From a virus, in the IMG/VR virus record IMGVR_UViG_3300036766_000701, positions 1 to 25,766 of that record: a DNA stretch of 25,766 nucleotides; one strand, given 5' to 3'. Shown piece after piece: positions 826-25,662 of this stretch. Each line of letters opens with the position of its first letter. Position 1 is the stretch's first letter. The translations under genes were made by a program, and so were the position numbers. The notes beneath the pieces are model-generated. The model saw only the letters and a program-made list of their open reading frames with translations, was not told where the DNA came from and searched no databases.

Positions 826-835
826 TGTGCAGGCT
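818..835. repeat. Repeat B, copy 1 (18 bp)
   Basis: AGGCGCACTGTGCAGGCT occurs here and again at 1520-1537, an exact 18-base match in the same orientation. It contains the odd-centred palindrome GCAC-T-GTGC. This copy overlaps the stop codon of the minus-strand gene 834-1220. Paired with repeat A (1232-1255), it brackets that gene. Confidence 0.75.
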
Positions 836-1220: not shown

Positions 1221-1229
1221 AGTCTCACC

Positions 1230-1790: not shown

Positions 1791-2145
1791 GGTCGCTCTC
1801 CTCTCGCTCCTTGGGCTATAATCCCCCCGAAACCTAATTGACTCCCCGCCAGCCCGTGAGCCTAGCGCTGTCGCGTGCCTGTCCTATCAGGTATAACGTT
1901 TTCCACTATTCGCCTGTTGTATCAAGAGCTTGTGACTTATCCGATTGGTACTACTATCTATTACCGCGCGGCACAAGTCAGGATAACTAGGGGACAGCCC
2001 GCCAGACCCCTCCCCCCGATTGCCCAGGCCCCCGCGGGGGAGATACCCACGTAAATCCATCCTCTCGCAATTTTTTGGGCGGCTTTTGTAACTTTTGATG
2101 GGCTCGGGCGTTAAACGAGCAGCGGTTCACCATCAGGAGGTTTCC
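1791..2145. promoter_or_regulatory. Divergent intergenic region
   Basis: About 355 bases between a leftward gene (start 1790) and a rightward gene (start 2146), with an AT-richer core (1885-1960) in a GC-rich genome. Possible plus-strand promoter: TTGTGA (1930-1935), 16-base spacer, TACTAT (1952-1957), four of six matches to each sigma70 box. CTTGTG (1929-1934) and CACAAG (1972-1977) are inverted around the putative -10. TATAAT occurs at 1817-1822 without a good -35. A perfect 12-bp palindrome of five C, GC, five G is at 2029-2040. No gene of credible length is seen. Confidence 0.4.
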
Positions 2146-2727: not shown

Positions 2728-2810
2728 GCATGCTCTACACTGGAACACTACCCACGGGAGAGCCTAGGGGACTAACGCTTGCTCACCCCGAGAGACCCGT
2801 GGGGGATGCC
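2727..2810. terminator. Long inverted-repeat structure between convergent genes
   Basis: CCCACGGG (2751-2758) pairs perfectly with CCCGTGGG (2796-2803). Outside it GGCAT (2727-2731) pairs with ATGCC (2806-2810), and inside it GGGG (2767-2770) can pair with CCCC (2786-2789). The element fills the gap between a rightward gene ending at 2727 and a leftward gene ending at 2813, where a bidirectional terminator is expected. There is no U-run on either side, so a structured RNA or protein-bound element is an alternative. It has no T-arm or anticodon arm and is not a tRNA. Confidence 0.4.
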
Positions 2811-2812
2811 CG

Positions 2813-3037
2813 TCAGTTCGGCTTTGGTGTCGGCTCTGCAAACTTCGGGGGCGTCTTGAGCAGGTCGGCGACGATGGGGAGCAGATCTTCGATTTTCGGC
2901 GGGGTCTCGTGCGTCTGAACCAGGCACGCGACAGCGTAGCCAGCCAACATCAGCCCAACCACGATGTCCGCGACGCCGCCGGCGCGAAGGTGAATCGCAA
3001 GGTCGCGGCCGAAGTCTTCAAGCTCGGGGATGGTCAT
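2813..3037 (-). CDS. Small single-pass membrane protein, 74 aa
   Basis: Starts MTIPELEDFGRDLAIHLRAG. The ATG at 3037 is two bases beyond the stop of the upstream gene (3040-3042), suggesting translational coupling; an in-frame ATG at 3067 would overlap that gene. One hydrophobic segment (residues about 22-41, DIVVGLMLAGYAVACLV) is preceded by an amphipathic helix and followed by a Pro/Lys-rich tail. The topology could fit a small phage membrane protein such as a holin-like or exclusion protein. No family is recognised. Confidence 0.55.
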   Translation of the reverse strand: MTIPELEDFGRDLAIHLRAGGVADIVVGLMLAGYAVACLVQTHETPPKIEDLLPIVADLLKTPPKFAEPTPKPN

Positions 3038-3039
3038 GG

Positions 3040-3399
3040 TTAACGAACCCCATAGTAATGGAGCCACACGTCTTGCTCCAGGTAGCGCGCCATGAAAACG
3101 ACCTCTGCATCCGTGGCTTTCGCCTTGTCCATGTGAACCTCGAACGAATTGGTCGCGGCCAGGAGATTGCCGGGGTTGTTCAACTCGCTCGGGTTGTAGA
3201 GCATGATGATGGCCCGCAGCTCCTCCGGCTTCTCGACGGAGTGATCCACATAGTCCAGGGCCTCCACGAGCATATCACGTGCGGACCGTTTGAAGTAGTC
3301 AGCCCAGGTGCGCTTCTCCGGTGGAACGGGCACGGGTGGGGATTGCAGAGCGTTGGCCAGAGCATCGGCGCTAGCGGGCTTCACGGGTTCGTCGGACAT
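3040..3399 (-). CDS. Hypothetical protein, 119 aa
   Basis: Start at 3399 (MSDEPVKPASADALA) is set by GAGGAGG four bases upstream; a longer in-frame start at 3498 would overrun the next gene. The first 40 residues are Pro/Ala-rich and probably disordered. The rest (TWADYFKRSARDMLVEALDY onward) is helical, acidic and rich in aromatics, ending ARYLEQDVWLHYYGVR. No catalytic motif is visible. It lies in a leftward run of four small genes (3973 to 2813). Confidence 0.6.
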   Translation of the reverse strand: MSDEPVKPASADALANALQSPPVPVPPEKRTWADYFKRSARDMLVEALDYVDHSVEKPEELRAIIMLYNPSELNNPGNLLAATNSFEVHMDKAKATDAEVVFMARYLEQDVWLHYYGVR

Positions 3400-3431
3400 A
3401 CAGCCTCCTCGCAAGGGTGAACTTTTGAAAT

Positions 3432-3698
3432 CTAGGCCGGAAAGACTCCGGCTTCTCTGAGCGGACCATACTCGTCTAGCCAAACACGTCGCCTCCACAT
3501 CAAGTCGATCATTGGAGAAAAATAATCGTGATCGTTGGCGTGGTCTGGATGCGTGGTATTGAGTTCCTGGGCGATGAGATTCGCCATTTCTTCCACATCT
3601 TGTCGATGTCCGTGGGGGTCGCCATAAAGAAGTTTCGCTCCCCGATAGGCGACCCAGGCCGCAAAACGCGGACTCACATCACGCCAGTCTTGTGTCAT
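3432..3698 (-). CDS. Hypothetical protein, 88 aa
   Basis: Start MTQDWRDVSPRFAAW at 3698 overlaps the stop of the upstream gene as ATGA, typical of coupled phage genes. The middle contains a His/Asp-rich stretch (NTTHPDHANDHDYFSP) that could bind metal, but no known metalloenzyme signature is complete. The protein looks helical and soluble. No family recognised. Confidence 0.6.
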   Translation of the reverse strand: MTQDWRDVSPRFAAWVAYRGAKLLYGDPHGHRQDVEEMANLIAQELNTTHPDHANDHDYFSPMIDLMWRRRVWLDEYGPLREAGVFPA

Positions 3699-3973
3699 TG
3701 TTCCCACCTGATGAATCGGCACTCAATCAAAGCAAACCGCTCCCCACGCGGCCCCGTCACGATCGGCGAGATGAGCGGCCACGTAGGGCAAAGCCCGTGC
3801 AATTCGTCCACGAGGCGCCGCACCCCTTGGGTGTCATAAGCGATCGAAAGCCCGTCCACGAAAGGCGTGCCCTGGTCATCCGTGCGGACGACGGCGTACA
3901 TCGGGGAGGCGGGTTCGATCTTCTTCTCAAGGCTCATGCTGGGTGAAACGCTTGGACCGGAGGAAGGTTCCAT
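3695..3973 (-). CDS. Hypothetical protein, 92 aa
   Basis: ATG at 3973 (MEPSSGPSVSPS) or the internal ATG at 3937 (MSLEKKIEPASPMYAVV) could be the start. Neither has a close Shine-Dalgarno, though GGAGG occurs about 20 bases before the first. The body (YAVVRTDDQGTPFVDGLSIA) reads as a small alpha/beta domain. It is the first gene of the leftward cluster and its promoter should lie between 3974 and 4042. Function unknown. Confidence 0.55.
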   Translation of the reverse strand: MEPSSGPSVSPSMSLEKKIEPASPMYAVVRTDDQGTPFVDGLSIAYDTQGVRRLVDELHGLCPTWPLISPIVTGPRGERFALIECRFIRWEQ

Positions 3974-4042: not shown

Positions 4043-4537
4043 ATGGCCGCCGAAAGTCTGACCGCCACCCTTACGCTGACCTGGAGCGACGTGCAGGGCA
4101 CGCTGCGTTCTGCCGCGTATCCGATGTCGTTCGGCTCACAGACGCGGCTCAATGCCCCGCGGGAGTTCACGATCAACTCCAACTCGACGGTGGATCTGTG
4201 GGACCCGACCCTCTGGACAGGTTACCCGGAAGGCGCTTTCACGTTCATGGCCTTCGCCATCCAAGACATCGGGGTCGCGCAGGCCAGCGCGAGCATCACA
4301 CCCATCGAGATCGAGCAGACCTGCAATCTCGCCAGCGCGCAAGGGTTCATCGACACGATCCCCGCTGGCGGGTGGTTTGTAATTCCGGGCAACGCCAGCT
4401 ACCGCACGCCCGCAAATCAGAACGATCAGTTCACCAGTTCGACAGCCGGCCTCATCAACCGGGTGCGCGTGAGGAACAAGAGTGCGAGCGTCAACGTGAA
4501 ATTGACCATGTATCTGGCCGACGCCACGGCCCCGTAG
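4043..4537 (+). CDS. Putative beta-rich virion structural protein, 164 aa
   Basis: Starts MAAESLTATLTLTWSDVQG. The whole chain is Ser/Thr/Asn/Ala-rich with alternating hydrophobic residues and ends in RVRVRNKSASVNVKLTMYLA, typical of all-beta phage structural proteins such as head decoration or minor tail proteins. No transmembrane segment. It is the first gene of the plus-strand virion block, upstream of the terminase genes. The Shine-Dalgarno is weak (GAGAG about nine bases upstream). Specific role unknown. Confidence 0.55.
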   Translation: MAAESLTATLTLTWSDVQGTLRSAAYPMSFGSQTRLNAPREFTINSNSTVDLWDPTLWTGYPEGAFTFMAFAIQDIGVAQASASITPIEIEQTCNLASAQGFIDTIPAGGWFVIPGNASYRTPANQNDQFTSSTAGLINRVRVRNKSASVNVKLTMYLADATAP

Positions 4538-10590: not shown

Positions 10591-11724
10591 GTGAATCCAC
10601 TCCGTATTGCAGGACCCTTCCGCAACTGGTTGCGCGAGGCCGTGATCCAGTACGCGCCGATTCTTTCCATCGGGGCGATCTTCCTGCCCTTCCTGCCCGT
10701 CTTCGCGCTCGCGCCGTTGCTGCCGCTCGCAATGGGTCCGGTCGAAACCTATGGGGACATCACGCCCCGGACGGCCGCGTGGGCAACGCGCCGGCTGGAG
10801 AAGCGCGGCATCCCCAAGATGATGATTGAGCATGTCGCGGAATCGCGCCCGATCCCGCAGAACGCCACCAACGTCGTGATTTTCCGGCGCTATGAGGCGT
10901 TTCCGCTCAACGTGACGCCGCTGCTCGAAGGCGTGACCCCGGCCTCGACCAAGATCACGAAGACCGACATCTCGGCCATCCTGACCCAATACGGAATGGT
11001 CTGGGAAGGTTCCGACGTGATCGGCCTGACCCACGAGGACCAGGTGCTTCAGGAGGTGATGAACGCGCTCGGCGAGAATGCCGCGCAAGTCCTGGAGACC
11101 GTCCGGTTCAACATCTTCGCCGCCGGCACAAACGTCATCTACAACAACCTGGCGGCTGGCCGGGCTTCCGTGGCATCCAAGCTGGACCGCCCATCAATCC
11201 GGCGCGCAGTGGCGGCTTTGAAGCGCCAGAACGCGGAGATGTTGACCGAACTGCTCGGAACGACGCCGAACTTCAACAAGGTCTCGGTGCAAGCCAGCTA
11301 TATCGCGGGCTATCATCCCGACCTCGACTCCTCGATCCGCGACCTGCCCGGCTTCAAGGACTCGTCCGACTACACGCAGAAGTCGCCGTACGGCAACGAG
11401 ATCGGTTCGCTGGAAGGCGTGCGCTTTCTGTGGACCCAGATCTTCGTGCCGTTCGCGGATGCGGGCGGGACGGCCGGCGGTAACTTCCGCAGCACCACGG
11501 GAACCTCGTGCGACGTGTACCCGATCCTGTACTTCGCCCGCGGCGGAGCGGCCATCGTGCCCTTGAAGGGCTCGGGAGCCATCACGCCAATGGTGTGGCA
11601 GGCGAAGGTCACGGAGTCCGACCCGATGGCCCAGCGCAACAAGGCGTCCTGGAAGGCTCTGCACACGGCGGCGATCACCAACCAGAACTGGCTCCTGCGG
11701 CATGAAGTGGCCGCTCCGGTCTAG
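10591..11724 (+). CDS. Major capsid protein (N4-gp56 family), N-terminal hydrophobic extension
   Basis: Builds the icosahedral shell. Residues from about 53 (TYGDITPRTAAWATRRLEKR) resemble the N4-gp56 family start, and the body (NVVIFRRYEAFPL; ILTQYGMVWEGSDVI; ETVRFNIFAAGTNVIYNN; FVPFADAGG; YPILYFARGGAAIVPLKG) and ending NQNWLLRHEVA are typical of HK97-fold proteins of this family. The GTG start at 10591 has AAGGAG six bases upstream; the nearby ATG at 10586 stops at once. Residues about 20-47 (APILSIGAIFLPFLPVFALA) form a Pro-rich hydrophobic segment resembling a signal peptide or membrane helix, with an internal ATG at 10732 (M48) lacking a Shine-Dalgarno. Confidence 0.85.
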   Translation: MNPLRIAGPFRNWLREAVIQYAPILSIGAIFLPFLPVFALAPLLPLAMGPVETYGDITPRTAAWATRRLEKRGIPKMMIEHVAESRPIPQNATNVVIFRRYEAFPLNVTPLLEGVTPASTKITKTDISAILTQYGMVWEGSDVIGLTHEDQVLQEVMNALGENAAQVLETVRFNIFAAGTNVIYNNLAAGRASVASKLDRPSIRRAVAALKRQNAEMLTELLGTTPNFNKVSVQASYIAGYHPDLDSSIRDLPGFKDSSDYTQKSPYGNEIGSLEGVRFLWTQIFVPFADAGGTAGGNFRSTTGTSCDVYPILYFARGGAAIVPLKGSGAITPMVWQAKVTESDPMAQRNKASWKALHTAAITNQNWLLRHEVAAPV

Positions 11725-11744
11725 GGCTGATGCCTGACCTCAAC

Positions 11745-11760
11745 GGGGCCTGACGGCCCC
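11745..11760 (+). other. Intergenic hairpin after the capsid gene
   Basis: GGGGCC (11745-11750), loop TGAC, GGCCCC (11755-11760), a perfect 6-bp stem 21 bases after the capsid stop. No U-run follows. It may act as a weak terminator or protect the 3' end of an abundant capsid mRNA. Similar hairpins recur after several genes downstream. Confidence 0.5.
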
Positions 11761-11783
11761 ACCCATGATGAAAGGAGGTCGCA

Positions 11784-12422
11784 ATGGCGACCGGACAAGG
11801 GCTGGAGAACACCCGCGAGCAGATTCTCGCGTACATGCATCTGAACTTCTGGGGCGGATCGACGCTGCCGGTGCTTGCCACGGGCACCACCACGTCCAAG
11901 TTCAAGAACACGAACACGATCCAGCACTTCATCAACGGCATCCCGGCGGCAGCCATCACCACGGCGGACTTTTCGATCGCCGTGCCGACCGGCTATGCGC
12001 CTGGTGTAGCTGGGCAGCAATTCATTCCCGCCGGCGCGGTGGTCCCTGCCGTCAGCGGCTCGGGCGGGGTCGTGGGGGCGAGCTGGCCGGCCACGATCGT
12101 TGCGATGAACTCGGCGGCGACCCTGGCGTCCTGGATCCGCTACCTGATCGTGGCGGATGCAACCGCGCTCTACGCCCTGCCCAGCTTCGTCGGGCTCGGG
12201 TCGGCGACTGCCGCGCCAGATGCACCCCCAGTTCCGGCCGGGTACGTCGTCATCGGAGACCTCACGGTCAAAGTGACGGCCGGCACCGTGTTCACGCCCG
12301 GAACCACCCTGCTCGGTGCAGGCGGGGTTACGGCGGTCTTCCGCGATCTCGCGTGGCCGGACACGGGACCGTCGGCGTATGCGGCGCGGGTTGGCTTGAC
12401 CGCGCTCGCCAACGTCATCTAG
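11784..12422 (+). CDS. Putative head accessory/decoration protein, 212 aa
   Basis: Starts MATGQGLENTREQILAYMHL with AAGGAGG at a normal distance. The first 50 residues are mixed (FWGGSTLPVLATGTTT); the rest is Ala/Gly/Val/Thr-rich and beta-like (VTAGTVFTPGTTLLGAGGV). It lies immediately after the capsid gene, where decoration or cement proteins are common, has a strong Shine-Dalgarno and is followed by a small GCGC hairpin. No exact family is recognised, so the role is from position and composition. Confidence 0.5.
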   Translation: MATGQGLENTREQILAYMHLNFWGGSTLPVLATGTTTSKFKNTNTIQHFINGIPAAAITTADFSIAVPTGYAPGVAGQQFIPAGAVVPAVSGSGGVVGASWPATIVAMNSAATLASWIRYLIVADATALYALPSFVGLGSATAAPDAPPVPAGYVVIGDLTVKVTAGTVFTPGTTLLGAGGVTAVFRDLAWPDTGPSAYAARVGLTALANVI

Positions 12423-12450: not shown

Positions 12451-13101
12451 ATGGACGGTTCTCAACTCTTGCTAAACATCTATCAGTCCTGGATCAAGCG
12501 CATTCAGAAACCGCTGGATGCGCAGATGCAGGATTTCAACACGGATTACGCGGCCTGTCAGAACATGGTGTTCAACGCGGCGGGTTTGGCGATCAAGAGC
12601 GGTGGTGGCAGCCCGGATTACTTGACCGCGAATACGATCAACTACATGATCGCCGGCGCAATCTATACCAAGGCGGCTGTGGCCGACAATGTCGTTACGG
12701 CCGGGACCCCAACCATGATCGCGTCACAATCCATGGCGATTCTGGTGCAGATCAATGCGGCCGGGACCATCTCGACCAAGAACAGCGCGGTCGTGGTCGC
12801 CAATCCCGTCATCCCGTCGCCGGACGCACTGAATGCCGCTATCGGCGTGATCTGGGTTACGACGGCCGTCGGTTTCGTCGGTACGTGGACGCCTGGCGCC
12901 GGAGGCACCAATCTCGATGCGGCCAATACGACGGTCGTGTACCAGGACTTCGTTGGCACGATCATCCCGCCCGTTCTGACGGCGTTGCCGCACAGGCCGA
13001 CCAGGCAAGATGCCAGCGGAATCACTTGCGCCACCTACGATCCATTCGCCCCGGCAAGCAGCGGAGCGGTGGATGAGGACAACCTGCCGCAACTCTACTG
13101 A
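12451..13101 (+). CDS. Virion structural protein, family-2 paralog a, 216 aa
   Basis: Paralog of the protein at 16661-17260. Shared blocks: AGLAIKSGGGSP here and AGLAIKAGGASP there; LVQINAAGTISTKNSAVVV against LVQVSTLGVFTTKAGTVVS; LNAAIGVIWVTT against LNAPIGVIWVQT. The N-terminus is helical (LLLNIYQSWIKRIQKPLDAQ) and the rest is Ala/Thr/Val-rich and beta-like. Two such copies flank a triplicated gene family, so both are likely virion proteins. A Gly/Ala-rich, low-complexity composition fits a capsid-surface or internal structural protein. No named family is recognised. Confidence 0.65.
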   Translation: MDGSQLLLNIYQSWIKRIQKPLDAQMQDFNTDYAACQNMVFNAAGLAIKSGGGSPDYLTANTINYMIAGAIYTKAAVADNVVTAGTPTMIASQSMAILVQINAAGTISTKNSAVVVANPVIPSPDALNAAIGVIWVTTAVGFVGTWTPGAGGTNLDAANTTVVYQDFVGTIIPPVLTALPHRPTRQDASGITCATYDPFAPASSGAVDEDNLPQLY

Positions 13102-13111
13102 GGAGGCTGTC

Positions 13112-13948
13112 ATGCGATACGAGCACTTCAACGAACTGAAGATGACCAGCGCCACCACGCTGGCGAAGCACTTGCGCGAGGAACTGGGCCAAGCACAGTA
13201 CACGAAGGAAAAGGCCAAGGAACTCGGCAAGGCGGGACTCGTGGACGTGCTGGTACTTGCGTACCAGGCCGCGGGGTTCCCCCTGCTCGGCGCTCCTGGC
13301 TGGCCGTGGCCGTGCAATCCCGGCCAGACGCCGGCGAATCAGCCCGTCCCTGCGGCTCCGAAGATGACGGCGAAGGAACAGAGCGCCAAGTTCATTGTGG
13401 CGCGCTTCAATCAGCTCGAACTGAAGGACGAGAACAACCGGCCGCTCAAGATGGAGAACCTGCCGCAGGATCAGAACGGCAAGACCCTGATCGACTTGAT
13501 GCTCATTACAGGTCCCGGATTCGTCCATCCGCGCTTCTGGGACTATCCCGCGTTGCCAGCGGGCCAGGAATACCGGGTGGCCGTCGTGTTTGACCCGCAG
13601 GGAAAGGAATCGACCCAGCAGACGCACTTGCTGCTCAACGGGCGCAGCTTGATCGCGCAACGCGACCACATCGTTTTCATCCCGGCCGAGTTCCTGGAGG
13701 TTGCGAACAACGGCAGGGGCATGATGGACGATGGCGGGAAGCTCAACTCCGAACTCGACATGAATCAGGCCGGTTCGGACCTGAAACTCCGTCCCTTCCG
13801 CGCCGAGCACATGCGCGAGATCGGCGAGGGCGTGACAGATTCCAAAGGCGCGCTGCTTCGCTGGCTGCGCCGGTTCGATGGGCAGCCGATTCCCGAGCCG
13901 CAGGCGTACGGCGCCGCGGCCCCCATGCAGCAGGCTCACGCGGGGTAG
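13112..13948 (+). CDS. Virion-associated protein, 278 aa
   Basis: Start at 13112 (MRYEHFNELKMTSATTLAKH) is fixed by GAGGAGG six bases upstream; the longer in-frame ATG at 13010 would run inside the previous gene. Residues 1-55 are helical, 60-85 are Pro-rich, then a mixed domain (FIVARFNQLELKDENNRPLK; MLITGPGFVHPRFWDYPALP; FIPAEFLEVANNGRGMMDDG) follows. The linker and Gln/Ala-rich C-terminus (PEPQAYGAAAPMQQAHAG) look disordered. No enzyme motif is visible. Position in the head cassette suggests a minor capsid protein. Confidence 0.6.
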   Translation: MRYEHFNELKMTSATTLAKHLREELGQAQYTKEKAKELGKAGLVDVLVLAYQAAGFPLLGAPGWPWPCNPGQTPANQPVPAAPKMTAKEQSAKFIVARFNQLELKDENNRPLKMENLPQDQNGKTLIDLMLITGPGFVHPRFWDYPALPAGQEYRVAVVFDPQGKESTQQTHLLLNGRSLIAQRDHIVFIPAEFLEVANNGRGMMDDGGKLNSELDMNQAGSDLKLRPFRAEHMREIGEGVTDSKGALLRWLRRFDGQPIPEPQAYGAAAPMQQAHAG

Positions 13949-13951
13949 GTC

Positions 13952-14401
13952 ATGCAAACGACGGCCCTGGTCAATCTAACGCCCTCCAGCGTCAACCTGG
14001 ACAACCTGTACGTGCCGACACAGGGTGCCGGCAACAACGGATGGGTATTTCTGCCCGAGGCGTCGTCCTGGTCTTTTGCGGTGGTCTGGAATGCCGGGAA
14101 TCCGGGTGTTGGGCCGGGCGGCTCCTTCGTCGTTCAGGGCACCAATGACGCTGTGGCGAAGCCATTGGACACTGCCGTCAATCCGGTCGCGGACGCAAAT
14201 CTCAACATCTTCATGCTGTTCGATGACATGGGCGTCGAGATGACGGTGCCGGCCGGGGGCGTCGCGGGTAGCAAGTTGTTCTTCAAACAGCGCCCGGCTC
14301 CGGCAAGGTGGGGACGGTTGAACTACATCGGTGGCGGAGGCGGCTGTACCGCCCAGATCACTTCATTGGTATTTCACGCGGTTGGCTTGCGCGACGCCTA
14401 A
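13952..14401 (+). CDS. Beta-rich structural protein, 149 aa
   Basis: Starts MQTTALVNLTPSSVNLDNLY three bases after the previous stop (TAG at 13946-13948). It reads as a beta-sandwich: NGWVFLPEASSWSFAVVWNA, then FVVQGTNDAVAKPLD, then RWGRLNYIGGGGGCTAQITS. The FVVQGTNDA region and the RWGRLNYIGG strand recall common phage head or tail surface proteins. A glycine run (five G) precedes a single Cys near the C-terminus. No precise family name can be given. Confidence 0.55.
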   Translation: MQTTALVNLTPSSVNLDNLYVPTQGAGNNGWVFLPEASSWSFAVVWNAGNPGVGPGGSFVVQGTNDAVAKPLDTAVNPVADANLNIFMLFDDMGVEMTVPAGGVAGSKLFFKQRPAPARWGRLNYIGGGGGCTAQITSLVFHAVGLRDA

Positions 14402-14415
14402 AGTCCGCGCGATCA

Positions 14416-14430
14416 GCGGCGCCGAGCCGC
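14416..14430 (+). other. GCGGC/GCCGC intergenic hairpin
   Basis: GCGGC (14416-14420), loop GCCGA, GCCGC (14426-14430), between the stop at 14401 and the start at 14461. It has the same stem sequence as the hairpins at 15141 and 15870, which sit in equivalent places around the triplicated genes. Confidence 0.5.
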
Positions 14431-14460
14431 GCAACGTAGGCTCGTATCTGGAGATCAATC

Positions 14461-15129
14461 ATGGCCGCAGGAGACCTGACCCCGATCCAACTCACCATCG
14501 ACCAGGGGATCGTCGAGCCCTATGGGCTGCTTCAGCAGGTGCGTGGTTCGCCCTTCCGTTCCATGTTCGCCGATCAGGTCATGCCGACGAAAGCCGAGCT
14601 TGTCCGCATGGGCAAGGTGTTCAGCGTCAGCGGCGGCGTGGTGGCGAACGGAGTCATCCCCGTGGTCGATCAGCCCACGGTCGTCAACACCAACGGCCTC
14701 TACAACAACAACTCGGTGGGCAGCAATATCCACCTGCTGCTCCTCAAAATCTCGCTCTATGCCTGCTCAGGCACGCTGGGGTTGGGCCGCGGCATCGTGG
14801 CGGGCGTATCCGGTCCGCAAGCCGCCGCACCGTCGGCCGGGACCGGCGTGGTCGGGCCGAAGAACCACATGCCGACCTCGACCAACACGTCCAATGCGAT
14901 CATGTCCACCAACACGAACTCGACCTTGACGCCCACGCTGCTTCACCTGGGCGGCTTGGATACGCCGGCGGCTCCCGAGATCGGCGCGGGCATCGCCGTG
15001 GACGTGGAGGGACTGTTCATCGTTCCTCCCACGTACATTTTCACGTCGCATGTGGTCGCCCCGACTGGCACAACCGCGAAATTCCTGTTCACGTTCACGT
15101 ACGCCGAGTACCAGATGATTCCGCAGTAG
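14461..15129 (+). CDS. Triplicated structural protein, copy 1 (222 aa)
   Basis: First of three tandem paralogs. Common elements: MAAGDLTPIQ start, SPFRSMFADQVMP with K/R-AELVRMGKVFS, the STNTSNAI block at about residue 138, and the ending EIGAG...DVEGLFIVPP...PTGTTAKFLFTFTYAEYQMIPQ. The sequences are Ser/Thr/Gly/Val-rich and beta-like with no membrane segment. Shine-Dalgarno CTGGAGA lies nine bases upstream. Copies 1 and 2 keep the same ending (WAEYVVIPQ in copy 2), so they are closer to each other than to copy 3. Likely abundant virion protein such as a decoration or fibre-base component. No known family is recognised. Confidence 0.65.
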   Translation: MAAGDLTPIQLTIDQGIVEPYGLLQQVRGSPFRSMFADQVMPTKAELVRMGKVFSVSGGVVANGVIPVVDQPTVVNTNGLYNNNSVGSNIHLLLLKISLYACSGTLGLGRGIVAGVSGPQAAAPSAGTGVVGPKNHMPTSTNTSNAIMSTNTNSTLTPTLLHLGGLDTPAAPEIGAGIAVDVEGLFIVPPTYIFTSHVVAPTGTTAKFLFTFTYAEYQMIPQ

Positions 15130-15140
15130 GCGCCTGACCC

Positions 15141-15157
15141 GCGGCCTTGACCGCCGC
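15141..15157 (+). other. GCGGC/GCCGC intergenic hairpin
   Basis: GCGGC (15141-15145), seven-base loop, GCCGC (15153-15157), between copy 1 and copy 2 of the triplicated gene. Same stem as 14416 and 15870, no U-run. Confidence 0.5.
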
Positions 15158-15185
15158 TCAATGAAGTTTTGCGCAGGAGACTGTT

Positions 15186-15857
15186 ATGGCCGCAGGAGAC
15201 TTGACGCCAATTCAAGGCAAGGTCGATCAGGGCATCTTCACTCCATACGGAGGGCTGCAACAGCCCCGTTTCTCGCCTCTCCGTTCCTTGTATGTGGATC
15301 AGGTCATGCCATCCCGGATGGAGTTGGTGCGGATGGGCAAGACCTTCTCGGCGTCGGGCGGGGTGGTGGCGAATGCGATTCAATCGGTAGTGGACATGCC
15401 GACGACAGCCACGACGAACGGACTCTACAACAACAACAGCCAGGTCTCGAACGTCTGCCTCGTGCTCTTGAAAGTCTCGTGCTATGCGGCTTCCGGCACG
15501 CTGGGCCTCGGGCACGCGATTGTGGCGGGCACAGGATCGTCGCCCCAAAGCTCCGTGCCAGCCAAGGGTACGGGCGTAGTCGGCCCCAACAACAATCTCC
15601 CGTCATCGACCAATACGTCGAACGCGATCATGACAACCGGCGTGGCGCTGGGCGGCGCTCCGGCCTGGGACGCGCTTGGCGGAACGGACAATCCGGCGGC
15701 TGTCGAGATCGGCGCAGGCGTGGTGGCCGATGTGGAAGGACTCTACATCGTCCCACCCGGCTATATGTTCGGAACGCATGTGCTGTCTCCGACCGGGACG
15801 ACGCCCAAGTATCTGTTCACGTTCGTCTGGGCCGAGTACGTCGTCATTCCGCAGTAA
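15186..15857 (+). CDS. Triplicated structural protein, copy 2 (223 aa)
   Basis: Second tandem paralog. Begins MAAGDLTPIQGKVDQGIFTP with an AGGAGA Shine-Dalgarno. Conserved: SPLRSLYVDQVMPSRMELVR with MGKTFSASGGVVANA, STNTSNAIMTTG, and the ending FTFVWAEYVVIPQ. It shares exact 26-base and 22-base DNA blocks with copy 3 (15606-15631 with 16340-16365; and GGCGCTCCGGCCTGG context), which suggests recent exchange or strong constraint. Beta-rich, no signal peptide. Probably a hetero-oligomer partner or substitute for copies 1 and 3. Function otherwise unknown. Confidence 0.65.
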   Translation: MAAGDLTPIQGKVDQGIFTPYGGLQQPRFSPLRSLYVDQVMPSRMELVRMGKTFSASGGVVANAIQSVVDMPTTATTNGLYNNNSQVSNVCLVLLKVSCYAASGTLGLGHAIVAGTGSSPQSSVPAKGTGVVGPNNNLPSSTNTSNAIMTTGVALGGAPAWDALGGTDNPAAVEIGAGVVADVEGLYIVPPGYMFGTHVLSPTGTTPKYLFTFVWAEYVVIPQ

Positions 15858-15869
15858 GGCGCATGAACT

Positions 15870-15887
15870 GCGGCATTTGAAGGCCGC
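15870..15887 (+). other. GCGGC/GCCGC intergenic hairpin
   Basis: GCGGC (15870-15874), eight-base loop, GCCGC (15883-15887), between copy 2 and copy 3. Third use of the same stem, while the loop sequence differs. Confidence 0.5.
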
Positions 15888-15916
15888 GTAACCCAAATTC
15901 AAGATTGGAGGCCAAC

Positions 15917-16591
15917 ATGGCCGCAGGCGATCTTACCCCCATCCAGGGGATCGTTGATGTTGGAACCGTGCAACAATACGGGTCCAATCAGACTCTCCGT
16001 TTGTCTCCGTTCCGCTCCGCCTTCGTGGATCAAGTGCTCCCGTCACGTGCGGAACTGGTGCGGATGGGCAAGGTGTTCTCGGCCAACCTGGGCACCGGCG
16101 CGGCTGCCACCGGCACCCAATCGGTGGCGCAGATGCCGACCACCGCAACCATCATGGCGCTCTGGAACGGTAATACCGTCGCCAGCAACATCCATCTCGT
16201 GATCCTGAAGGTGTCGGCGTGGGTGTTCGCGGGCACGATGGGGCTGGGCAAGTCCATGATCTGCGGAACCTCCACGGCTTCCCAGACCGTAGTGACCAAG
16301 GGCACGGGTGCGGTGGGGCCGACCAACAACCTGCTGACCTCGACCAATACGTCGAACGCGATCATCGGCCAGGCCACTGTGCTGGGCGGCGCTCCGGCCT
16401 GGATCGTGGTGGCGGGCGCGGACAGCCCTTCAGCGGTCGAAATCGGGGCTTCGATGGCGGCCGATGTCGAGGGCCTGTTCATCGTGCCTCCGGGCTTCGC
16501 CTTCGGGATGCACGTCCTCGGTGGCGCCGGCACGGCCCCCCTGTACCTGGGGTCGGTCTGCTGGGCCGAATTGGCGCTGACCGCGCAATAG
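15917..16591 (+). CDS. Triplicated structural protein, copy 3 (224 aa)
   Basis: Start MAAGDLTPIQGIVDVGTVQQ at 15917 has TTGGAGG six bases upstream; an in-frame ATG 12 bases earlier is unlikely because it would overlap the Shine-Dalgarno. Keeps SPFRSAFVDQVLPSRAELVR, MGKVFS, STNTSNAI, VEIGAS...DVEGLFIVPPGFAFGMHV. It diverges at the C-terminus (CWAELALTAQ rather than WAEY..IPQ) and lacks the PTGTT strand, so it may have a different partner or exposed surface. Beta-rich virion protein of unknown name. Confidence 0.65.
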   Translation: MAAGDLTPIQGIVDVGTVQQYGSNQTLRLSPFRSAFVDQVLPSRAELVRMGKVFSANLGTGAAATGTQSVAQMPTTATIMALWNGNTVASNIHLVILKVSAWVFAGTMGLGKSMICGTSTASQTVVTKGTGAVGPTNNLLTSTNTSNAIIGQATVLGGAPAWIVVAGADSPSAVEIGASMAADVEGLFIVPPGFAFGMHVLGGAGTAPLYLGSVCWAELALTAQ

Positions 16592-16604
16592 TCAGCGTGA
16601 TAGC

Positions 16605-16630
16605 GGGCGGATGGTTGTAATAGGCCGCCC
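16605..16630 (+). other. GGGCGG/CCGCCC hairpin after copy 3
   Basis: GGGCGG (16605-16610), 14-base loop, CCGCCC (16625-16630), 13 bases past the copy 3 stop. It closes the triplicated block; stem related to but not identical with the GCGGC stems. Confidence 0.45.
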
Positions 16631-16660
16631 CACCTTGTCCTCAAGTCAGGAGCGCCCACG

Positions 16661-17260
16661 ATGGATGCCAGGTTCGCCGCAGAGATGAAGCAGCACCACA
16701 TCGACGTGATTGCGGCCGCCTCGGACGCGCTCGGGCAGGACTTCAACGCGCTTCTATCGGCGAGAGTGGTTTACGACCAGGCGGGTCTTGCCATCAAGGC
16801 CGGCGGGGCTTCGCCGCAGTTCTCAACCGCGAACAAAATCCGGTACGGGATCGGCGGAAGCCTGTATTCGATGGACCAGCAGGCCGCACTGTCGTTTTCG
16901 GCGGCGCTGCCCATCATCCCAGTCGCCTCCAGCGCGGCTTTTCTGGTGCAGGTGAGTACGCTTGGGGTTTTCACCACCAAGGCCGGTACGGTCGTGTCTG
17001 GAGCCAATGCACCCTTGCCGGTGCCGGACCTCTTGAACGCGCCCATTGGGGTCATCTGGGTACAGACGAACGGCTCGACAACCTTCACGCCGGGCACGAC
17101 CAAACTTGACATGCCGGGCCTGACCGTAGAGTACGTCAGTTTCATGTGCCTGCAAACGGGCCTGGGCACCTACCCACGCCTGCCCACGGCGCCCTTCACC
17201 AGCGCAGCCGCACTGGATACCAACCCGACGCCCCCAGTGTTCAATCCGCAGGCTTTCTAG
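16661..17260 (+). CDS. Virion structural protein, family-2 paralog b, 199 aa
   Basis: Paralog of the protein at 12451-13101 (shared AGLAIKAGGASP, LVQVSTLGVFTTKAGTVVSG, LNAPIGVIWVQT). Starts MDARFAAEMKQHHIDVIAAA with AGGAG nine bases upstream. Both copies have a helical N-terminus and an Ala/Thr-rich beta body; the C-terminus here is Pro-rich (PRLPTAPFTSAAALDTNPTP). Their placement on either side of the triplet suggests an ancestral block duplication or two layers of the same structure. Role not assigned. Confidence 0.65.
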   Translation: MDARFAAEMKQHHIDVIAAASDALGQDFNALLSARVVYDQAGLAIKAGGASPQFSTANKIRYGIGGSLYSMDQQAALSFSAALPIIPVASSAAFLVQVSTLGVFTTKAGTVVSGANAPLPVPDLLNAPIGVIWVQTNGSTTFTPGTTKLDMPGLTVEYVSFMCLQTGLGTYPRLPTAPFTSAAALDTNPTPPVFNPQAF

Positions 17261-17269: not shown

Positions 17270-17923
17270 ATGTCCACGCTGGTTTCAACAGTGCTGGCGG
17301 GCGCTAGGACGCCGCTGAATGACCTGACGGTCGGGGCCTATCGCTGGTCCGACGCGGCGCTGATCTCCTACCTCAACGACATCATCCTGGAAATCGTGGC
17401 GAAGGACGACCGTGCCTACCCGGTGCGCGTCCCCGCACAGCTTGTTCCCGGCACGGTGCTGCAAACAAACGTGCTGCCCTCGGACGGCTCGCTCGTGAAA
17501 CATCTGGGTGTGACCCGGAATCTTCGCGCCAATGCCACCGCGCCAGGCGGCTATCTACCAGGGCCAGCGATCGTCAAGGTCTCGAATATCGAGATCATGG
17601 ATCGGCAGACCAAGAATTGGTACTCATCGCCGTTCGCAACGGAGATCCAGAATTGGATTCCATCCGGCGAGGACTACGAGAAGTTCTTCGTCTGGCCGCC
17701 CCCCGGTCTGACCATTCCGGTGTGGGTGGAACTGCTCTACACGGTGGTCCCGCCTCAAATGGTTGCCGTCACGGACACCATCCCGATCCGGGACAAGTAC
17801 CGTTTCCAGATGCAGATAGGCGTCGTCGGTCGCGCGCTCATGCAGGACATCCCCGAGGGCGACCTGCCCCGCGGAAAGATTTTTATGGACTTGTTCTACG
17901 CCAGTCTGAAGCAAGGGAGTTAG
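17270..17923 (+). CDS. Head-tail adaptor-like protein (DUF6682-like)
   Basis: The N-terminal pattern VGAYRWSDAALISYLNDIILEI with a following basic/acidic segment is that of phage adaptor proteins that bind below the portal in short-tailed phages (a family carrying the RWSDAELLDYLND-type motif). 217 residues. The rest is beta and Pro-rich (GEDYEKFFVWPPPGLTIPVW). AGGAG overlaps the previous stop, so translation is coupled. Neighbour 17927-18619 looks like a second ring or tube protein. Family name is from memory of the motif and was not tested. Confidence 0.7.
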   Translation: MSTLVSTVLAGARTPLNDLTVGAYRWSDAALISYLNDIILEIVAKDDRAYPVRVPAQLVPGTVLQTNVLPSDGSLVKHLGVTRNLRANATAPGGYLPGPAIVKVSNIEIMDRQTKNWYSSPFATEIQNWIPSGEDYEKFFVWPPPGLTIPVWVELLYTVVPPQMVAVTDTIPIRDKYRFQMQIGVVGRALMQDIPEGDLPRGKIFMDLFYASLKQGS

Positions 17924-17926
17924 CCC

Positions 17927-18619
17927 ATGCTGACCGACTTCCAGATTTTTCACGAGTTTATCGAGCCGCGGCTGCCGGGCGGGATTCCGGGGCCGTCGCT
18001 GGAGCGATCCATTCGAGATGCCGCAATCGAGCTGTACCGCGATCTTCAGTGGTTGCAGGAATATCCATTGAACACGATCAGCCTGAAGGCGAATCAAGCC
18101 GTGTATGAGCTTCAGTCGCCTGAGCCGGAAATGGCCGTATGCGATGTTGTTCGCGTCATTTGCAACGGCGTGATGGTGCAAAAACGAGAGAGGCCGTTTT
18201 TCGATACCTTTGTGGAAAGGTGGGAGGTTCAAACCTCCGCGGCGCCCACTTTTTACATGATCCTCGGCTACGACGACATACGAATGCAGATTCAGTTGGT
18301 GCCTTTTCCGAACGCGGACACCACTGCCAGCAATACGACCGGCCTGACCGTGCGGGTTTCTTGCTGCCCCACAACCGTCAGCCGCAAATTGGACGGCTCA
18401 GCCTTCACGATGATGCGCTACGCCATCGCGGCCTGGGTACTCAGGGACCTTTCGGGCCAGCGCGGGATGCCCTGGTTCGACCGGGATGCCGAGCGCGTGC
18501 ATGACGCCGAGTTCCTGAAGTATAAGGGCCAGTTGATGATGCAGCGGGAAGTGGGGCAGGGCAGAGCCTTCGGTTTGGTGACAACCTGTGCTCTGGGAAT
18601 ATACCCGAGACAACCGTAA
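17927..18619 (+). CDS. Tail adaptor/tube-like protein, 230 aa
   Basis: Starts MLTDFQIFHEFIEPRLPGGI; AGGGAG before the ATG lies inside the end of the upstream gene, so the genes are coupled. The pattern DAAIELYRDLQWLQEYPLN, then VCDVVRVICNGVMVQKRE, then PTFYMILGYDDIRMQIQLVP and MMRYAIAAWVLRDLSGQ matches phage proteins of the adaptor/gatekeeper group found between portal and nozzle in podoviruses. It has no known catalytic residues. Likely forms the second ring of the tail. Confidence 0.6.
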   Translation: MLTDFQIFHEFIEPRLPGGIPGPSLERSIRDAAIELYRDLQWLQEYPLNTISLKANQAVYELQSPEPEMAVCDVVRVICNGVMVQKRERPFFDTFVERWEVQTSAAPTFYMILGYDDIRMQIQLVPFPNADTTASNTTGLTVRVSCCPTTVSRKLDGSAFTMMRYAIAAWVLRDLSGQRGMPWFDRDAERVHDAEFLKYKGQLMMQREVGQGRAFGLVTTCALGIYPRQP

Positions 18620-18631: not shown

Positions 18632-19816
18632 ATGCCGCTCGCACAGATCACGAAGCCAATGTCCTTCGGCACCCTTGCCGGTGCCATCACCTCCGGCGCG
18701 ACCTCGATCACGGTGGGGTCGGGCCAGGGCGGCCGGTTCGATGCCATCGCCAGCGGGAAGTACCTGCGCGGCATTCTGATCGACTTCAACACAAGCCAGA
18801 ACTCCAACTACAACCGCTTCGAGGTCGTCAAGCTGACGCTGCTGGCGGGCGATACGTTCACTGTCGCGCGCGGGCAGGAAGGAACTGCCGCGCAGGCATT
18901 CCCGATCAATGCCGCCGACTCGGCTTCGCTGGTCAAGCTGTTCGTGGGGGATACGGTCCTGCAACTAAAGGAGATCGCTATGGGGGGCGGGGCCTTGATT
19001 CAGGCCACGGCCCCGACGCTGACCGTCGATTCTCCCCGTGTCCTGATCCTGACGCCCGTGGCTCCGATCACTGTGACGCTACCCACGGCCAATATCTGCG
19101 CTGGGTGGTCCTACCTTATCGTCAATCTGGGGACGGCGGCCAACACCATCACCGTCAACGCGAGTGGGGGGACGACGGTCCTAGTCCTACAGGGCCTTCT
19201 CAACGCGGAGGTTTGCGCCTACCAGGATACGCCGACGACCAACGCGCACTGGGGGCCGCGCTCTACCCGTCTCGTGGCGGCGGCTTCGTTGCCGACGGTC
19301 GCGGGCGAATTGGGGTATTTGTCTGGCGGCCTGAACATCGGCGATGGCACGATCAACCGGCCTATCGGGCGGGATTCGGCATCAAGCAATACAGCCTTTA
19401 CTAGTACATCTTCTGTAGCACTTGGAGCAACGCTTGTTATTCCAGCGAATAGTCTGAATGCGGATGGGAAGATGTATCGGTTCTATGCCTACATCGACAC
19501 AAGCAATGCGGCAGCAAGCTGGGGTGGAACCTTCCGTTTTGATGGCACAACATTAGCGGCGGTTGGTACAGGCGAGTCCGCGGATTATGTTTTTGCTGGT
19601 ATCATAATTAGATTATCAGCAACGACGTGCGTTATTTTCGGCCATTACTCATTAAGTCTCTCCGGTTCACACGGTACGTTTTCGTTTCCTACAACGGGAA
19701 CTACGTGCGTACAAACTGTGGCGAACTGGACAGCTACAAGAACACTAGATTTCAATATAACTAATTGGACCAGCGGCACCATGCGCTCCATCATCGTCGG
19801 CGAGCAACTAAACTGA
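18632..19816 (+). CDS. Tail fibre/receptor-binding protein, AT-richer C-terminus
   Basis: The N-terminus (ITSGATSITVGSGQGG, then FEVVKLTLLAGDTFTVARGQEGT) is a virion-attachment domain seen in many phage fibres; the RGQEGT motif (residues about 80-85) is typical. The middle (120-220) is beta-rich with repeated Thr/Val strands. The C-terminal module from about residue 248 (ASSNTAFTSTSSVALGATLV to LDFNITNWTSGT) looks like a jelly-roll tip. GC is about 40% at 19381-19440 and 43% at 19561-19620, against 70% at 19201-19260, so this module may have been acquired separately. It would determine host range. Confidence 0.7.
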   Translation: MPLAQITKPMSFGTLAGAITSGATSITVGSGQGGRFDAIASGKYLRGILIDFNTSQNSNYNRFEVVKLTLLAGDTFTVARGQEGTAAQAFPINAADSASLVKLFVGDTVLQLKEIAMGGGALIQATAPTLTVDSPRVLILTPVAPITVTLPTANICAGWSYLIVNLGTAANTITVNASGGTTVLVLQGLLNAEVCAYQDTPTTNAHWGPRSTRLVAAASLPTVAGELGYLSGGLNIGDGTINRPIGRDSASSNTAFTSTSSVALGATLVIPANSLNADGKMYRFYAYIDTSNAAASWGGTFRFDGTTLAAVGTGESADYVFAGIIIRLSATTCVIFGHYSLSLSGSHGTFSFPTTGTTCVQTVANWTATRTLDFNITNWTSGTMRSIIVGEQLN

Positions 19817-22600: not shown

Positions 22601-23296
22601 ATGGCCGCCAACGCGCAAGTCCCGAGTCTCGGCATACCGCCGACAGATCCCGATAAGGTTGCGGCGTACCTGCTGCAAATCAAGGCGATCCTGGATTTTC
22701 ACGGCATTTCTGGGGCGGCCGGCGCAGTTCCGGCGACTGATGGGCGGGGCAATCTGAATCCGCTCGGTGGAATCCCGAGCCCCGGCCCGATTGGTTTTGG
22801 GGCCGCCTATCCCGCGAAGTTCACCACGATCATCGGGCGCATCCCGCTGCTGCATGTGCGGGAGGAGCAGCCATCAGGAACAATGGGCGGCACGGCGAAC
22901 TCCGGAGCTTGGCGAACTCGCGTTCTGAATACAAGTAAGACTAACGAAATTAGCGGCGCTTCACTGGCGAGCAACCAGATCACTTTGCCTGCTGGCACCT
23001 ATTGGCTTGAAGCGAGCGCACCGGCGTTTGCCAGTTTACAACAGAAGATCAAACTCTACAACGTAACGGATTCGACTGACGTGATGGCTGGCACATCAGA
23101 GTACGCGATGAACACTTCTTTGTCTGAAGTCAGTACCAATAGCTTCTTGCGAGGACGCTTTGTGCTGGCGGGAACAAAAGCGCTGGAGCTACGGCATCAA
23201 GTGGCAAGTACCCGCGGCACTAATGGCTTTGGCTACGCTTCGGCGTTCGGCAATGTCGAGGTCTATTCAGAAGTCATGATCTGGCAGGTGGGCTGA
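22601..23296 (+). CDS. Second tail fibre with TNF-like tip, 231 aa
   Basis: Residues about 87-231 match a widely shared phage receptor-binding tip: VREEQPSGTMGGTANSGAWR, then VLNTSKTNEISGASLASNQI, LPAGTYWLEASAPAF, KIKLYNVTDSTDVM, ending in GFGYASAFGNVEVYSEVMIW. The N-terminal 86 residues are Pro/Gly-rich and likely bind the nozzle or the other fibre. GC of the tip is about 47% (22921-22980 and 23041-23100), lower than the surrounding genes. ATG at 22601 follows the nozzle stop directly. A host-range determinant; it may act with the larger fibre at 18632. Confidence 0.75.
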   Translation: MAANAQVPSLGIPPTDPDKVAAYLLQIKAILDFHGISGAAGAVPATDGRGNLNPLGGIPSPGPIGFGAAYPAKFTTIIGRIPLLHVREEQPSGTMGGTANSGAWRTRVLNTSKTNEISGASLASNQITLPAGTYWLEASAPAFASLQQKIKLYNVTDSTDVMAGTSEYAMNTSLSEVSTNSFLRGRFVLAGTKALELRHQVASTRGTNGFGYASAFGNVEVYSEVMIWQVG

Positions 23297-23298: not shown

Positions 23299-23763
23299 AT
23301 GGAATCCACCGCCAGAAACGTCGAGCCTTTCCCTGCGGCCATCGTAATTCAGGAACGGTACGCCGATGTGGCGGCGGAAGGACTGGCGTTGTTCCGGGCG
23401 CACGGAAAGGAGATCGGCTTCGATACCCTGCCGCGGCGGTGGCAGCCAGCACTCAACCTCTACCGCGACCTTGAGCAGGCTGGGCAAGTGGTCTGGCTAT
23501 CGGTACGGGACGATAGCCTCGAACTGATCGGCTACGCCCTGCTTCTATTCGGGCCAAGTACTCTCTTTTCAGGTGCTGTGGCGGCAACCGTCGAGTGGAT
23601 TTACATTCGCCCCGAGCACAGAGAGGTGGCGCTTCTGCGCGAACTGTGGCAGGAAATCGACAAGGCCGTGAAAGCGCAGGGGGCGGTCAGCCTCAACTGG
23701 TCCGTCTGGAAACGCAAGGGCGGGAAGCGCCCTAGCCAAGTCACTCACTGGCGCTTCTTCTAG
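23299..23763 (+). CDS. GNAT-like N-acetyltransferase, 154 aa
   Basis: The GNAT fold is suggested by the strand-loop region VVWLSVRDDSLELIGYALLL followed by VEWIYIRPEHREVALLRELW, where the R/Q-x-x-G/A acetyl-CoA loop is expected (here RPEHREVALLRELW) and a C-terminal strand (VSLNWSVWKRK). The N-terminal helix contains ALFRAHGKEIGFDTLPRRWQ. Length fits small phage members. It lies inside the tail/ejection block, so it may modify a virion or early host target. The acetyl-CoA loop is degenerate, so confidence is moderate. Confidence 0.6.
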   Translation: MESTARNVEPFPAAIVIQERYADVAAEGLALFRAHGKEIGFDTLPRRWQPALNLYRDLEQAGQVVWLSVRDDSLELIGYALLLFGPSTLFSGAVAATVEWIYIRPEHREVALLRELWQEIDKAVKAQGAVSLNWSVWKRKGGKRPSQVTHWRFF

Positions 23764-23772: not shown

Positions 23773-25662
23773 ATGTGCGGTGGAAATTCGGTACTCGGAA
23801 AGGTCGCGGACGCCCTGGTGGGGGGTGGTCCTTCTTCGAAGACAGCGGAAGAGAAATCCGGAAAATTTGACAACGACGCTGCGGCTCAGTTCCAAGCCGA
23901 GGCCGCAGCTGCGCCTGAAGTCGCAGCTGCGGCTCGGGAAGAAGCCGCGCAAGGCGAGGCGATGCTCGGCTCCGGGCGGGCGACGGTCCGGCAAGGCATG
24001 GATACCGTTTCGGAGGGACGTGAGATCGTAGGCCAGGGACGAAGCACGATTGGCGAAGGACAGGAAATCCGCAGGCAGGCACAGCAAGAATACGGAACAC
24101 AAGCAGGGCTCCGAGACCAAATGATCTCGGAGGGCACGATCACGCCAGGCAAACTCGATGTTGCGCGTTCCGGGGCCATGGCGGACGTGGCTGCGGCCTA
24201 CCGTGGGGCGAAGTCCGCCAGGGACCGGTCAAATGCGGCCATGGGCATCAACCCCGGCGATCCTGGGGCTCAAGGCGGAGACAACGCCGCAAGCGTCGGT
24301 CTGGCCGCGGCTCAAGTAGGGACAGGCAATGCTGCTGCTCTCGCCGAGCGCAAGTATCGCACTGAAGTCGGGGCTACGGCCATCGGCCAAGAACAGGCGC
24401 GCCAAGGCATCGCTAGCACGGCAGAGGGTGTGGGAGGGTCGATCGTGGGCGCTGGTGCTGGATTGGAAAGTGCGGGCTTTGCAGGCCAGGGCGTCGGCTA
24501 TGGCGCTCAGACAGCTGGGGCGAAGTCGCTTGCCAGCGCAACGAGCGGTCTTATGGGAGCTGGCCGCATGTATGGCGAATCTGGCTCCGGGCTGGAAAAG
24601 ATCGGGGCCGCCCAGACGCAATTGCAGGCGGGCCAGGAACAGCAGCAGACTTCGCTCATCCCCACCTTCTCGCTCTCCCGCGGTGGAAAGATTTCACGCA
24701 TGGGATTCCGTCCGTCAGTTATGCGTACGCACGATGGGCGTATCTTTCCGACTCGTACCGCCGTCGCGCAAGGCCAGATCAGCGGCCCCGGTACGGGCAC
24801 ATCCGATGGAGTGGAAGCACACCTCAGTGATGGCGAGTACGTTCAAACCGCCAAGTCTACCAAAGCGATCGGTCCTCGCACGCTGGACACGCTGACCGAG
24901 ATCGGCCACAGAGCGGCGACGGGCGATCCCAAAGGAGCGAAGCATCTCAAGCGCGTGGTCCGGGCCATCCATGGGGCCGGCTTCCGTGCGCCGGAACGGG
25001 TAGCGGGGAAAGAACCGCGGCCGGCCAGAACATCAGTTCAGGCGCAATGGGGCGGTCAGAACAGAGGTAGGGGTACTATCGGCGCTCCGCATGGCGAGTC
25101 CCGCGTCCCAACAACTGTCAAGGACGGCGGCTTTCGACCCGAAAAAGTGGGCACGGTCATGCACGAGTTCAAGGCTGGGACTTTGCACAGCGGCAAGAAC
25201 GGTCCGGCTGTGACCAATTCGAAGCAGGCCATTGCCATTGCGCTTTCTGAGAAGCGGCGGGCGGAAGCGGTGCATGGCGGACTCAAGCGGCGTGGCCGTG
25301 GCTTCCGTGCCGCCGACGGAGGTTCCATGCCTTGGCTTCAAGACGCGAGCGATGCGGTCGCGGCGGCCCCACCGTCCAGCGGGAAAAGCAACCATATCTC
25401 GCTGAAACCGAAACTTCGCCGCGGCGGAACGGTAAGGGCGGCAGACGGCGGAGGGTATCTCGACCAGACGGATATCAACGTGGTGCCCGGCATGAACGCA
25501 GAGGAGTCCATCGCTGGCGCGAAGAACCAGCAGTCCCTCATGGGCAATTTCAATGGTCCGAACGCTTCGCGTCCTTCTGTCAACATAGGTGGTGGCAACC
25601 AGCACAAGGGCAACCACATCAAAATTAGCGAGGCGGTTAAACTGGCAGCCATGTTCGGGTGA
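23773..25662 (+). CDS. Internal virion/ejection protein with glycine heptads and DUF6496-like domain
   Basis: MCGGNSVLGKVADALVGGGP begins a 629-residue Gly/Ala/Gln-rich protein. Residues 67-108 are six seven-residue units (SGRATVR, QGMDTVS, EGREIVG, QGRSTIG, EGQEIRR, QAQQEYG) with Gly at position two of five. Residues 219-275 continue Gly-rich. At 341-356 is TGTSDGVEAHLSDGEY, a motif common in ejected virion proteins. At about 458-499, KVGTVMHEFKAGTLHSGKNG followed by QAIAIALSEKRRAE matches DUF6496. The C-terminus has RRGGTVRAADGGG and ends AVKLAAMFG. GAGGG before ATG supports the start. Probably ejected with the genome. Confidence 0.7.
   Translation: MCGGNSVLGKVADALVGGGPSSKTAEEKSGKFDNDAAAQFQAEAAAAPEVAAAAREEAAQGEAMLGSGRATVRQGMDTVSEGREIVGQGRSTIGEGQEIRRQAQQEYGTQAGLRDQMISEGTITPGKLDVARSGAMADVAAAYRGAKSARDRSNAAMGINPGDPGAQGGDNAASVGLAAAQVGTGNAAALAERKYRTEVGATAIGQEQARQGIASTAEGVGGSIVGAGAGLESAGFAGQGVGYGAQTAGAKSLASATSGLMGAGRMYGESGSGLEKIGAAQTQLQAGQEQQQTSLIPTFSLSRGGKISRMGFRPSVMRTHDGRIFPTRTAVAQGQISGPGTGTSDGVEAHLSDGEYVQTAKSTKAIGPRTLDTLTEIGHRAATGDPKGAKHLKRVVRAIHGAGFRAPERVAGKEPRPARTSVQAQWGGQNRGRGTIGAPHGESRVPTTVKDGGFRPEKVGTVMHEFKAGTLHSGKNGPAVTNSKQAIAIALSEKRRAEAVHGGLKRRGRGFRAADGGSMPWLQDASDAVAAAPPSSGKSNHISLKPKLRRGGTVRAADGGGYLDQTDINVVPGMNAEESIAGAKNQQSLMGNFNGPNASRPSVNIGGGNQHKGNHIKISEAVKLAAMFG

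What the first reader, a model, noticed from the sequence alone, without database searches (positions are those of the whole stretch)
14461..16591. Tandem triplication of a virion protein
Three genes of near-equal length (222, 223, 224 codons) share MAAGDLTPIQ, the DQV.P..ELVRMGK.FS block, STNTSNAI and a matching C-terminal domain. Copies 2 and 3 share an exact 26-base stretch (15606-15631 = 16340-16365), while copy 3 diverges at its end. The three could form a hetero-oligomer, substitute for one another, or diversify an exposed surface. I do not recognise this family.
Basis: partly seen in the sequence, partly recalled or inferred. Interest (0 to 1): 0.7.

Follow-up and report, generated by a model that had tools for sequence, protein, structure and literature searches.

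The report
Tandem trio of orphan phage-head genes
A short-tailed bacterial virus carries three side-by-side, diverged copies of a gene of unknown family in the block where it keeps its capsid genes; they are most likely capsid-surface accessory proteins that duplicated and were all kept, but nothing yet shows they are in the virus particle.

Summary
Three ORFs (14461-15129, 15186-15857, 15917-16591; 222/223/224 aa) are tandem paralogs (65/57/49% identity, period 725/731 nt), each with its own ribosome-binding site. dN/dS is about 0.3 with near-saturated dS, so all three are old and under purifying selection, and assembly error is very unlikely. The 26-nt c2/c3 identity is real and belongs to a longer patch: a second exact 22-nt block lies 15 unlike bases downstream, giving 14 consecutive identical codons at conserved residues (P about 4e-4). 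This suggests local gene conversion between copies 2 and 3.

The proteins match nothing in Pfam, PHROGs, NCBIfam or PDB sequences, and no relative appeared in the phage, plasmid, IMG/VR or genome scans made. AlphaFold on three sequences failed (pLDDT 26). "Virion protein" rests on position only: between an N4-gp56-type capsid gene and the tail adaptor genes. That interval is 5.5 kb here versus a median 1.2 kb (maximum 3.9) in 68 relatives. It also holds a second, unreported triplicated family whose relatives sit beside the capsid gene in other phages, predicted helix plus beta-sandwich. Best reading: an expanded set of capsid accessory (decoration or head-fibre) proteins; oligomeric state unknown.

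The parts
14461..15129 (+). copy 1 (c1), 222 aa, orphan family B
   Evidence: GGAG ribosome-binding motif upstream (sequence)
15186..15857 (+). copy 2 (c2), 223 aa, orphan family B
   Evidence: AGGAG upstream
15917..16591 (+). copy 3 (c3), 224 aa, orphan family B; C-terminus diverges
   Evidence: GGAGG upstream
15606..15668 (+). c2 side of the patch shared with c3: 26-nt exact block 15606-15631, 15 unlike bases, 22-nt exact block 15647-15668
16340..16402 (+). c3 side of the same patch: exact blocks 16340-16365 and 16381-16402
15130..15185 (+). c1-c2 spacer with GCGGC/GCCGC hairpin; part of the duplicated unit
   Evidence: fold -14.4 kcal/mol
15858..15916 (+). c2-c3 spacer with a similar hairpin
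   Evidence: fold -16.1 kcal/mol
10732..11724 (+). major capsid protein, N4-gp56 family (TIGR04387); likely start 10732
   Evidence: E 4.5e-69; phrog_1357; 9d82, 9d7z capsid chains
11784..12422 (+). family A, copy 1
12451..13101 (+). family A, copy 2
16661..17260 (+). family A, copy 3; predicted N-terminal helix plus beta-sandwich
   Evidence: (pLDDT 74, core near 90)
13112..13948 (+). unassigned ORF in the same block
13952..14401 (+). orphan 149-aa ORF just upstream of c1
17270..17923 (+). head-tail adaptor (SU10_adaptor)
   Evidence: 1.7e-12; phrog_399
17927..18619 (+). second head-tail adaptor (SU10_adaptor)
   Evidence: 1.2e-8

Best explanation
Three tandem paralogs of an orphan family sit inside an enlarged set of capsid accessory genes of a podovirus. 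Most likely each product is a small, beta-rich protein displayed on the capsid as a decoration, cement or head-fibre protein. The set arose by repeated duplication of a gene-plus-spacer unit of about 730 nt, all copies being retained under purifying selection and at least one patch being exchanged between copies 2 and 3. SHOWN: homology, tandem order, purifying selection, separate ribosome-binding motifs, location in the capsid-adaptor block, unusual size of that block. INFERRED: presence in the virion, capsid location, beta fold, gene conversion. NOT DETERMINED: homo- or hetero-oligomers, and whether the copies occupy different lattice sites.
For: Tandem paralogy and period. dN/dS 0.29, 0.29, 0.35 with dS 1.15-1.33. 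Position between an N4-gp56 capsid gene and two SU10-type adaptors. The capsid-adaptor interval is 5540 nt versus median 1162, range 329-3904, in 68 relatives, so it is a slot where extra genes accumulate. The neighbouring family A, also in three copies, has relatives next to the capsid gene in about a dozen other contigs and a predicted helix plus beta-sandwich fold whose weak structural matches include phage receptor-binding sandwich-domain proteins. Capsids of related podophages carry differing decoration proteins: N4 gp17 Ig-like (PMC11768535), Moo19 gp28 and B2 gp45 of unlike folds (PMC11654681), GP4 gp1 trimers (PMC9698820). Few charged residues, 17-20 of about 223.
Against: No sequence match to any decoration or fibre protein. 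No usable structure model (pLDDT 26.3). No relative in another genome, so gene-neighbourhood conservation cannot be tested for this family itself. The trio is not adjacent to the capsid gene: it starts about 2.7 kb downstream. dS is near saturation, so the dN/dS values are rough.
Confidence: 0.5

Rival explanations
1. They are tail or adsorption appendage proteins (short fibres or whiskers near the collar), three variants for different receptors.
For: They lie directly upstream of the adaptor genes, separated only by one family A gene. The neighbouring family A model has weak structural matches to receptor-binding sandwich-domain proteins. Multiple diverged copies would suit alternative receptors.
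Against: Recognisable tail-fibre genes lie elsewhere (18632-19816 and 22601-23296). No fibre-family hit for the trio. No reverse transcriptase or variable-cassette signature was noticed among the window's family hits.
Confidence: 0.22
2. They are inserted accessory genes transcribed with the late operon but not part of the virion (moron-like).
For: Orphan family absent from 36 related records and from the 80 capsid-selected loci. The interval is variable in size between relatives.
Against: Same strand, tight spacing and similar G+C (0.62-0.64) as the structural genes. No promoter or terminator signal above shuffles.
Confidence: 0.15
3. They are internal head or ejection proteins.
For: Late-operon position.
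Against: Small proteins; a likelier internal-protein candidate lies further downstream (23773-25662, weak phrog_8003 match).
Confidence: 0.08
4. Assembly artefact or decaying neutral duplicates.
For: Public metagenome-derived contig; reads could not be inspected.
Against: Copies differ at about one third of nucleotides, remain open over their full length, have dN/dS about 0.3 and independent ribosome-binding motifs.
Confidence: 0.03

Closest known systems
GP4 gp1 cement protein (Ralstonia podophage, T=9; PMC9698820)
   Same: Accessory capsid protein of a podophage whose capsid fold is close to that of the Moo19/B2 capsids (PMC11654681), which the window's capsid protein matches by sequence.
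   Different: One gene of 157 aa, Ig-like, homotrimers. No solved chain of any kind matches the trio by sequence.
N4 gp17, Moo19 gp28, B2 gp45 decoration proteins (Schitoviridae)
   Same: Decorate capsids built from the same N4-gp56-type capsid protein.
   Different: A single decoration protein type each, no sequence similarity detected, no tandem paralogs reported in the passages read (PMC11768535, PMC11654681).
Sf14 gp33 plus gp20 (two decoration proteins on one capsid; PMC11821841)
   Same: More than one accessory protein type per capsid.
   Different: gp33 and gp20 are unlike in fold (beta-tulip trimer versus Hoc-like Ig), whereas the trio here are paralogs of one family.
Dual tubeA (adaptor) paralogs of Bcep22-like phages (PMC10386132)
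   Same: Adjacent structural paralogs in a podovirus; this window has two SU10-adaptor genes as well.
   Different: Those are described as brought together by fusion of divergent lineages, not tandem duplication; a different protein.

Membership tests
Tailed-phage capsid decoration/cement protein | encoded in the capsid gene block | tested here: met
   between N4-gp56 capsid gene and adaptors, though not directly adjacent
Tailed-phage capsid decoration/cement protein | sequence homology to a known decoration protein (not required of every decoration protein, since several unrelated folds serve) | tested here: not met
   no match in Pfam, PHROGs, NCBIfam, PDB sequences
Tailed-phage capsid decoration/cement protein | small beta-sandwich, Ig-like or beta-tulip fold | tested here: inconclusive
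   AlphaFold model pLDDT 26.3
Tailed-phage capsid decoration/cement protein | present on the outer capsid surface, often as trimers | not testable with these tools
   needs proteomics and cryo-EM
Phage tail fibre / receptor-binding protein | match to fibre families | tested here: not met
   no hits for the trio; fibre hits lie at 18632-19816 and 22601-23296
Tandem paralog array | head-to-tail homologous copies of constant period | tested here: met
   period 725/731, full-length homology
N4-gp56 major capsid protein (context gene 10732-11724) | TIGR04387 above curated cut-off | tested here: met
   233.2 bits versus cut-off 60
Gene-conversion tract | local silent-site identity beyond the surrounding divergence | tested here: met
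   run of 14 identical codons, P about 4e-4 by permutation, 1e-4 by codon-usage simulation; three pairs tested

The most novel reading that the evidence does not exclude
The three paralogs form a mosaic capsid coat (heterotrimer, or each copy on its own class of quasi-equivalent site), with the conserved STNTSNAI and LGGAPAW anchors flanking an exchangeable variable loop swapped between copies by gene conversion. Together with triplicated family A this would be a capsid with six accessory proteins from two expanded families.
Probability: 0.1. Interest if true: 0.75.

Novelty: new variant of a known kind. Interest (0 to 1): 0.4.

Why it matters
Podophages with near-identical capsid shells use unrelated decoration proteins whose purpose is debated (PMC11654681). 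An old, selectively maintained set of three paralogs of one orphan family, beside a second triplicated family in the same interval, would be a natural system for asking whether capsid coats specialise by lattice site or by exposed surface. It also adds a protein family absent from the libraries searched.

Tried and rejected
Relatives of the trio: alignment and single-protein scans of viral contigs for all three copies, and of genome contigs for the alignment and c2, gave nothing real. The three viral hits (L088-L090) come from a pattern (WDALGGTD occurs in the L088 protein) in a large protein of an unrelated tail gene cluster and were not found by the profile. Motif scans: VEGL[FY]IVPP gave 0; EIGA-x4-DVEG gave 5 loci, none convincing (best profile E 0.019 against a small set). 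tblastn against phages with c2 and c3, and plasmids with c1, gave no significant match. Profile-profile comparison with family A, the 149-aa ORF and the 4043-4537 ORF gave no relation. Structure prediction from three sequences failed, so no fold search was run on the trio. The PDB fold search of family A gave no meaningful match. A diversity-generating retroelement was considered and not supported: no reverse transcriptase among the window proteins searched.

Full report
OBSERVATION. They are full-length homologs: c1/c2 65%, c2/c3 57%, c1/c3 49% amino-acid identity, arranged head to tail at 725 and 731 nt, each preceded by its own purine-rich ribosome-binding motif (sequence). Non-synonymous divergence is 0.33-0.47 against synonymous 1.15-1.33, giving dN/dS 0.29-0.35 (dS is close to saturation, so these are rough). 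The copies are therefore old and constrained as proteins. An assembly duplication would be nearly identical, so this is very unlikely to be one.

THE c2/c3 PATCH. The 26-nt identity is real and does not occur by chance in shuffles. It is followed after 15 unlike bases by a second exact block of 22 nt (15647-15668 = 16381-16402). Over 14 consecutive residues conserved between c2 and c3 every codon is identical, although over the whole gene only 44% of codons at conserved residues agree. Permuting codon order gives P about 4e-4 and a codon-usage simulation 1e-4; no comparable run exists for the other pairs. The most likely cause is a small gene-conversion event between copies 2 and 3. A nucleotide-level functional element is possible but would have to be absent from copy 1.

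WHAT FAMILY. No model in PHROGs, Pfam or NCBIfam fits, no solved structure matches by sequence, and no relative was found in phage or plasmid records, IMG/VR pattern scans or the species genomes. A direct profile search of 36 related records and of all ORFs in about 84 loci also found none. AlphaFold with three sequences gave pLDDT 26, unusable.

CONTEXT. The window is a 25.8-kb viral contig with terminase and portal genes, an N4-gp56 capsid protein (233 bits versus cut-off 60), two SU10-type adaptors, and a tail protein matching 8jov (E 3e-58) and Bcep22-like phages. It is thus a mosaic podovirus-like genome. I retrieved 80 IMG/VR loci by capsid similarity. In 68 loci with both capsid and adaptor genes the interval between them is 329-3904 nt, median 1162; in the window it is 5540 nt. 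These loci are related to one another and many contigs are fragments, so this is a description, not a test. The extra length holds the trio, two other ORFs, and family A.

11784-12422, 12451-13101 and 16661-17260 are also paralogs of each other: 42% identity for the last two, the first one weaker. Relatives lie beside the capsid gene in other contigs (some found only by iterated profiles), and L074 has two copies. With 15 sequences AlphaFold gives a confident core: an N-terminal helix followed by a beta-sandwich. Foldseek finds one clear uncharacterised phage protein (E 6e-11) and many weak matches, including sandwich domains annotated as receptor-binding. So a capsid-linked, possibly surface-exposed protein family flanks the trio on both sides. 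The trio itself shows no relation to family A by sequence profiles.

INTERPRETATION. Position, constraint, and expansion of this interval argue for capsid accessory proteins. Related podophages with this capsid type use decoration proteins of several unrelated folds (PMC9698820, PMC11654681, PMC11768535), so lack of sequence similarity is not strong evidence against. But virion presence, fold, and oligomeric state are all untested, and a collar or tail appendage or a non-virion accessory role remains open. Hetero-oligomer, substitution and surface diversification cannot be separated with present data.

VERDICT. A real and mildly unusual duplication of an orphan family, embedded in an enlarged capsid gene block with a second triplicated family. 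Mechanistic claims must wait for homologs or virion data.

Noticed in passing
11784-12422, 12451-13101, 16661-17260: Second triplicated family (family A) flanking the trio; relatives sit next to the capsid gene in other phage contigs; predicted helix plus beta-sandwich.
   Followed up: yes
L074:1609-2097 and L074:2146-2949: Family A is also duplicated in tandem in this related contig.
   Followed up: partly
L071:8025-8519 and L062:7990-8568: Family A relatives located upstream rather than downstream of the capsid gene.
   Followed up: no
17270-18619: Two adjacent SU10-type adaptor genes, resembling the dual tubeA arrangement described for Bcep22-like phages in PMC10386132.
   Followed up: partly
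11725-11783, 14402-14460, 15130-15185, 15858-15916, 16592-16660: G+C-rich hairpins in the spacers of the capsid block, without a T run; perhaps mRNA processing or attenuation.
   Followed up: no
1229-1255 and 1536-1562; 813-835 and 1515-1537: Short near-identical direct repeats in the left part of the contig, function unknown.
   Followed up: no
23773-25662: 629-aa ORF with a DUF6496 match and a weak virion-structural PHROG match.
   Followed up: no
23299-23763: Small ORF with a sub-threshold GNAT acetyltransferase match among the tail genes.
   Followed up: no
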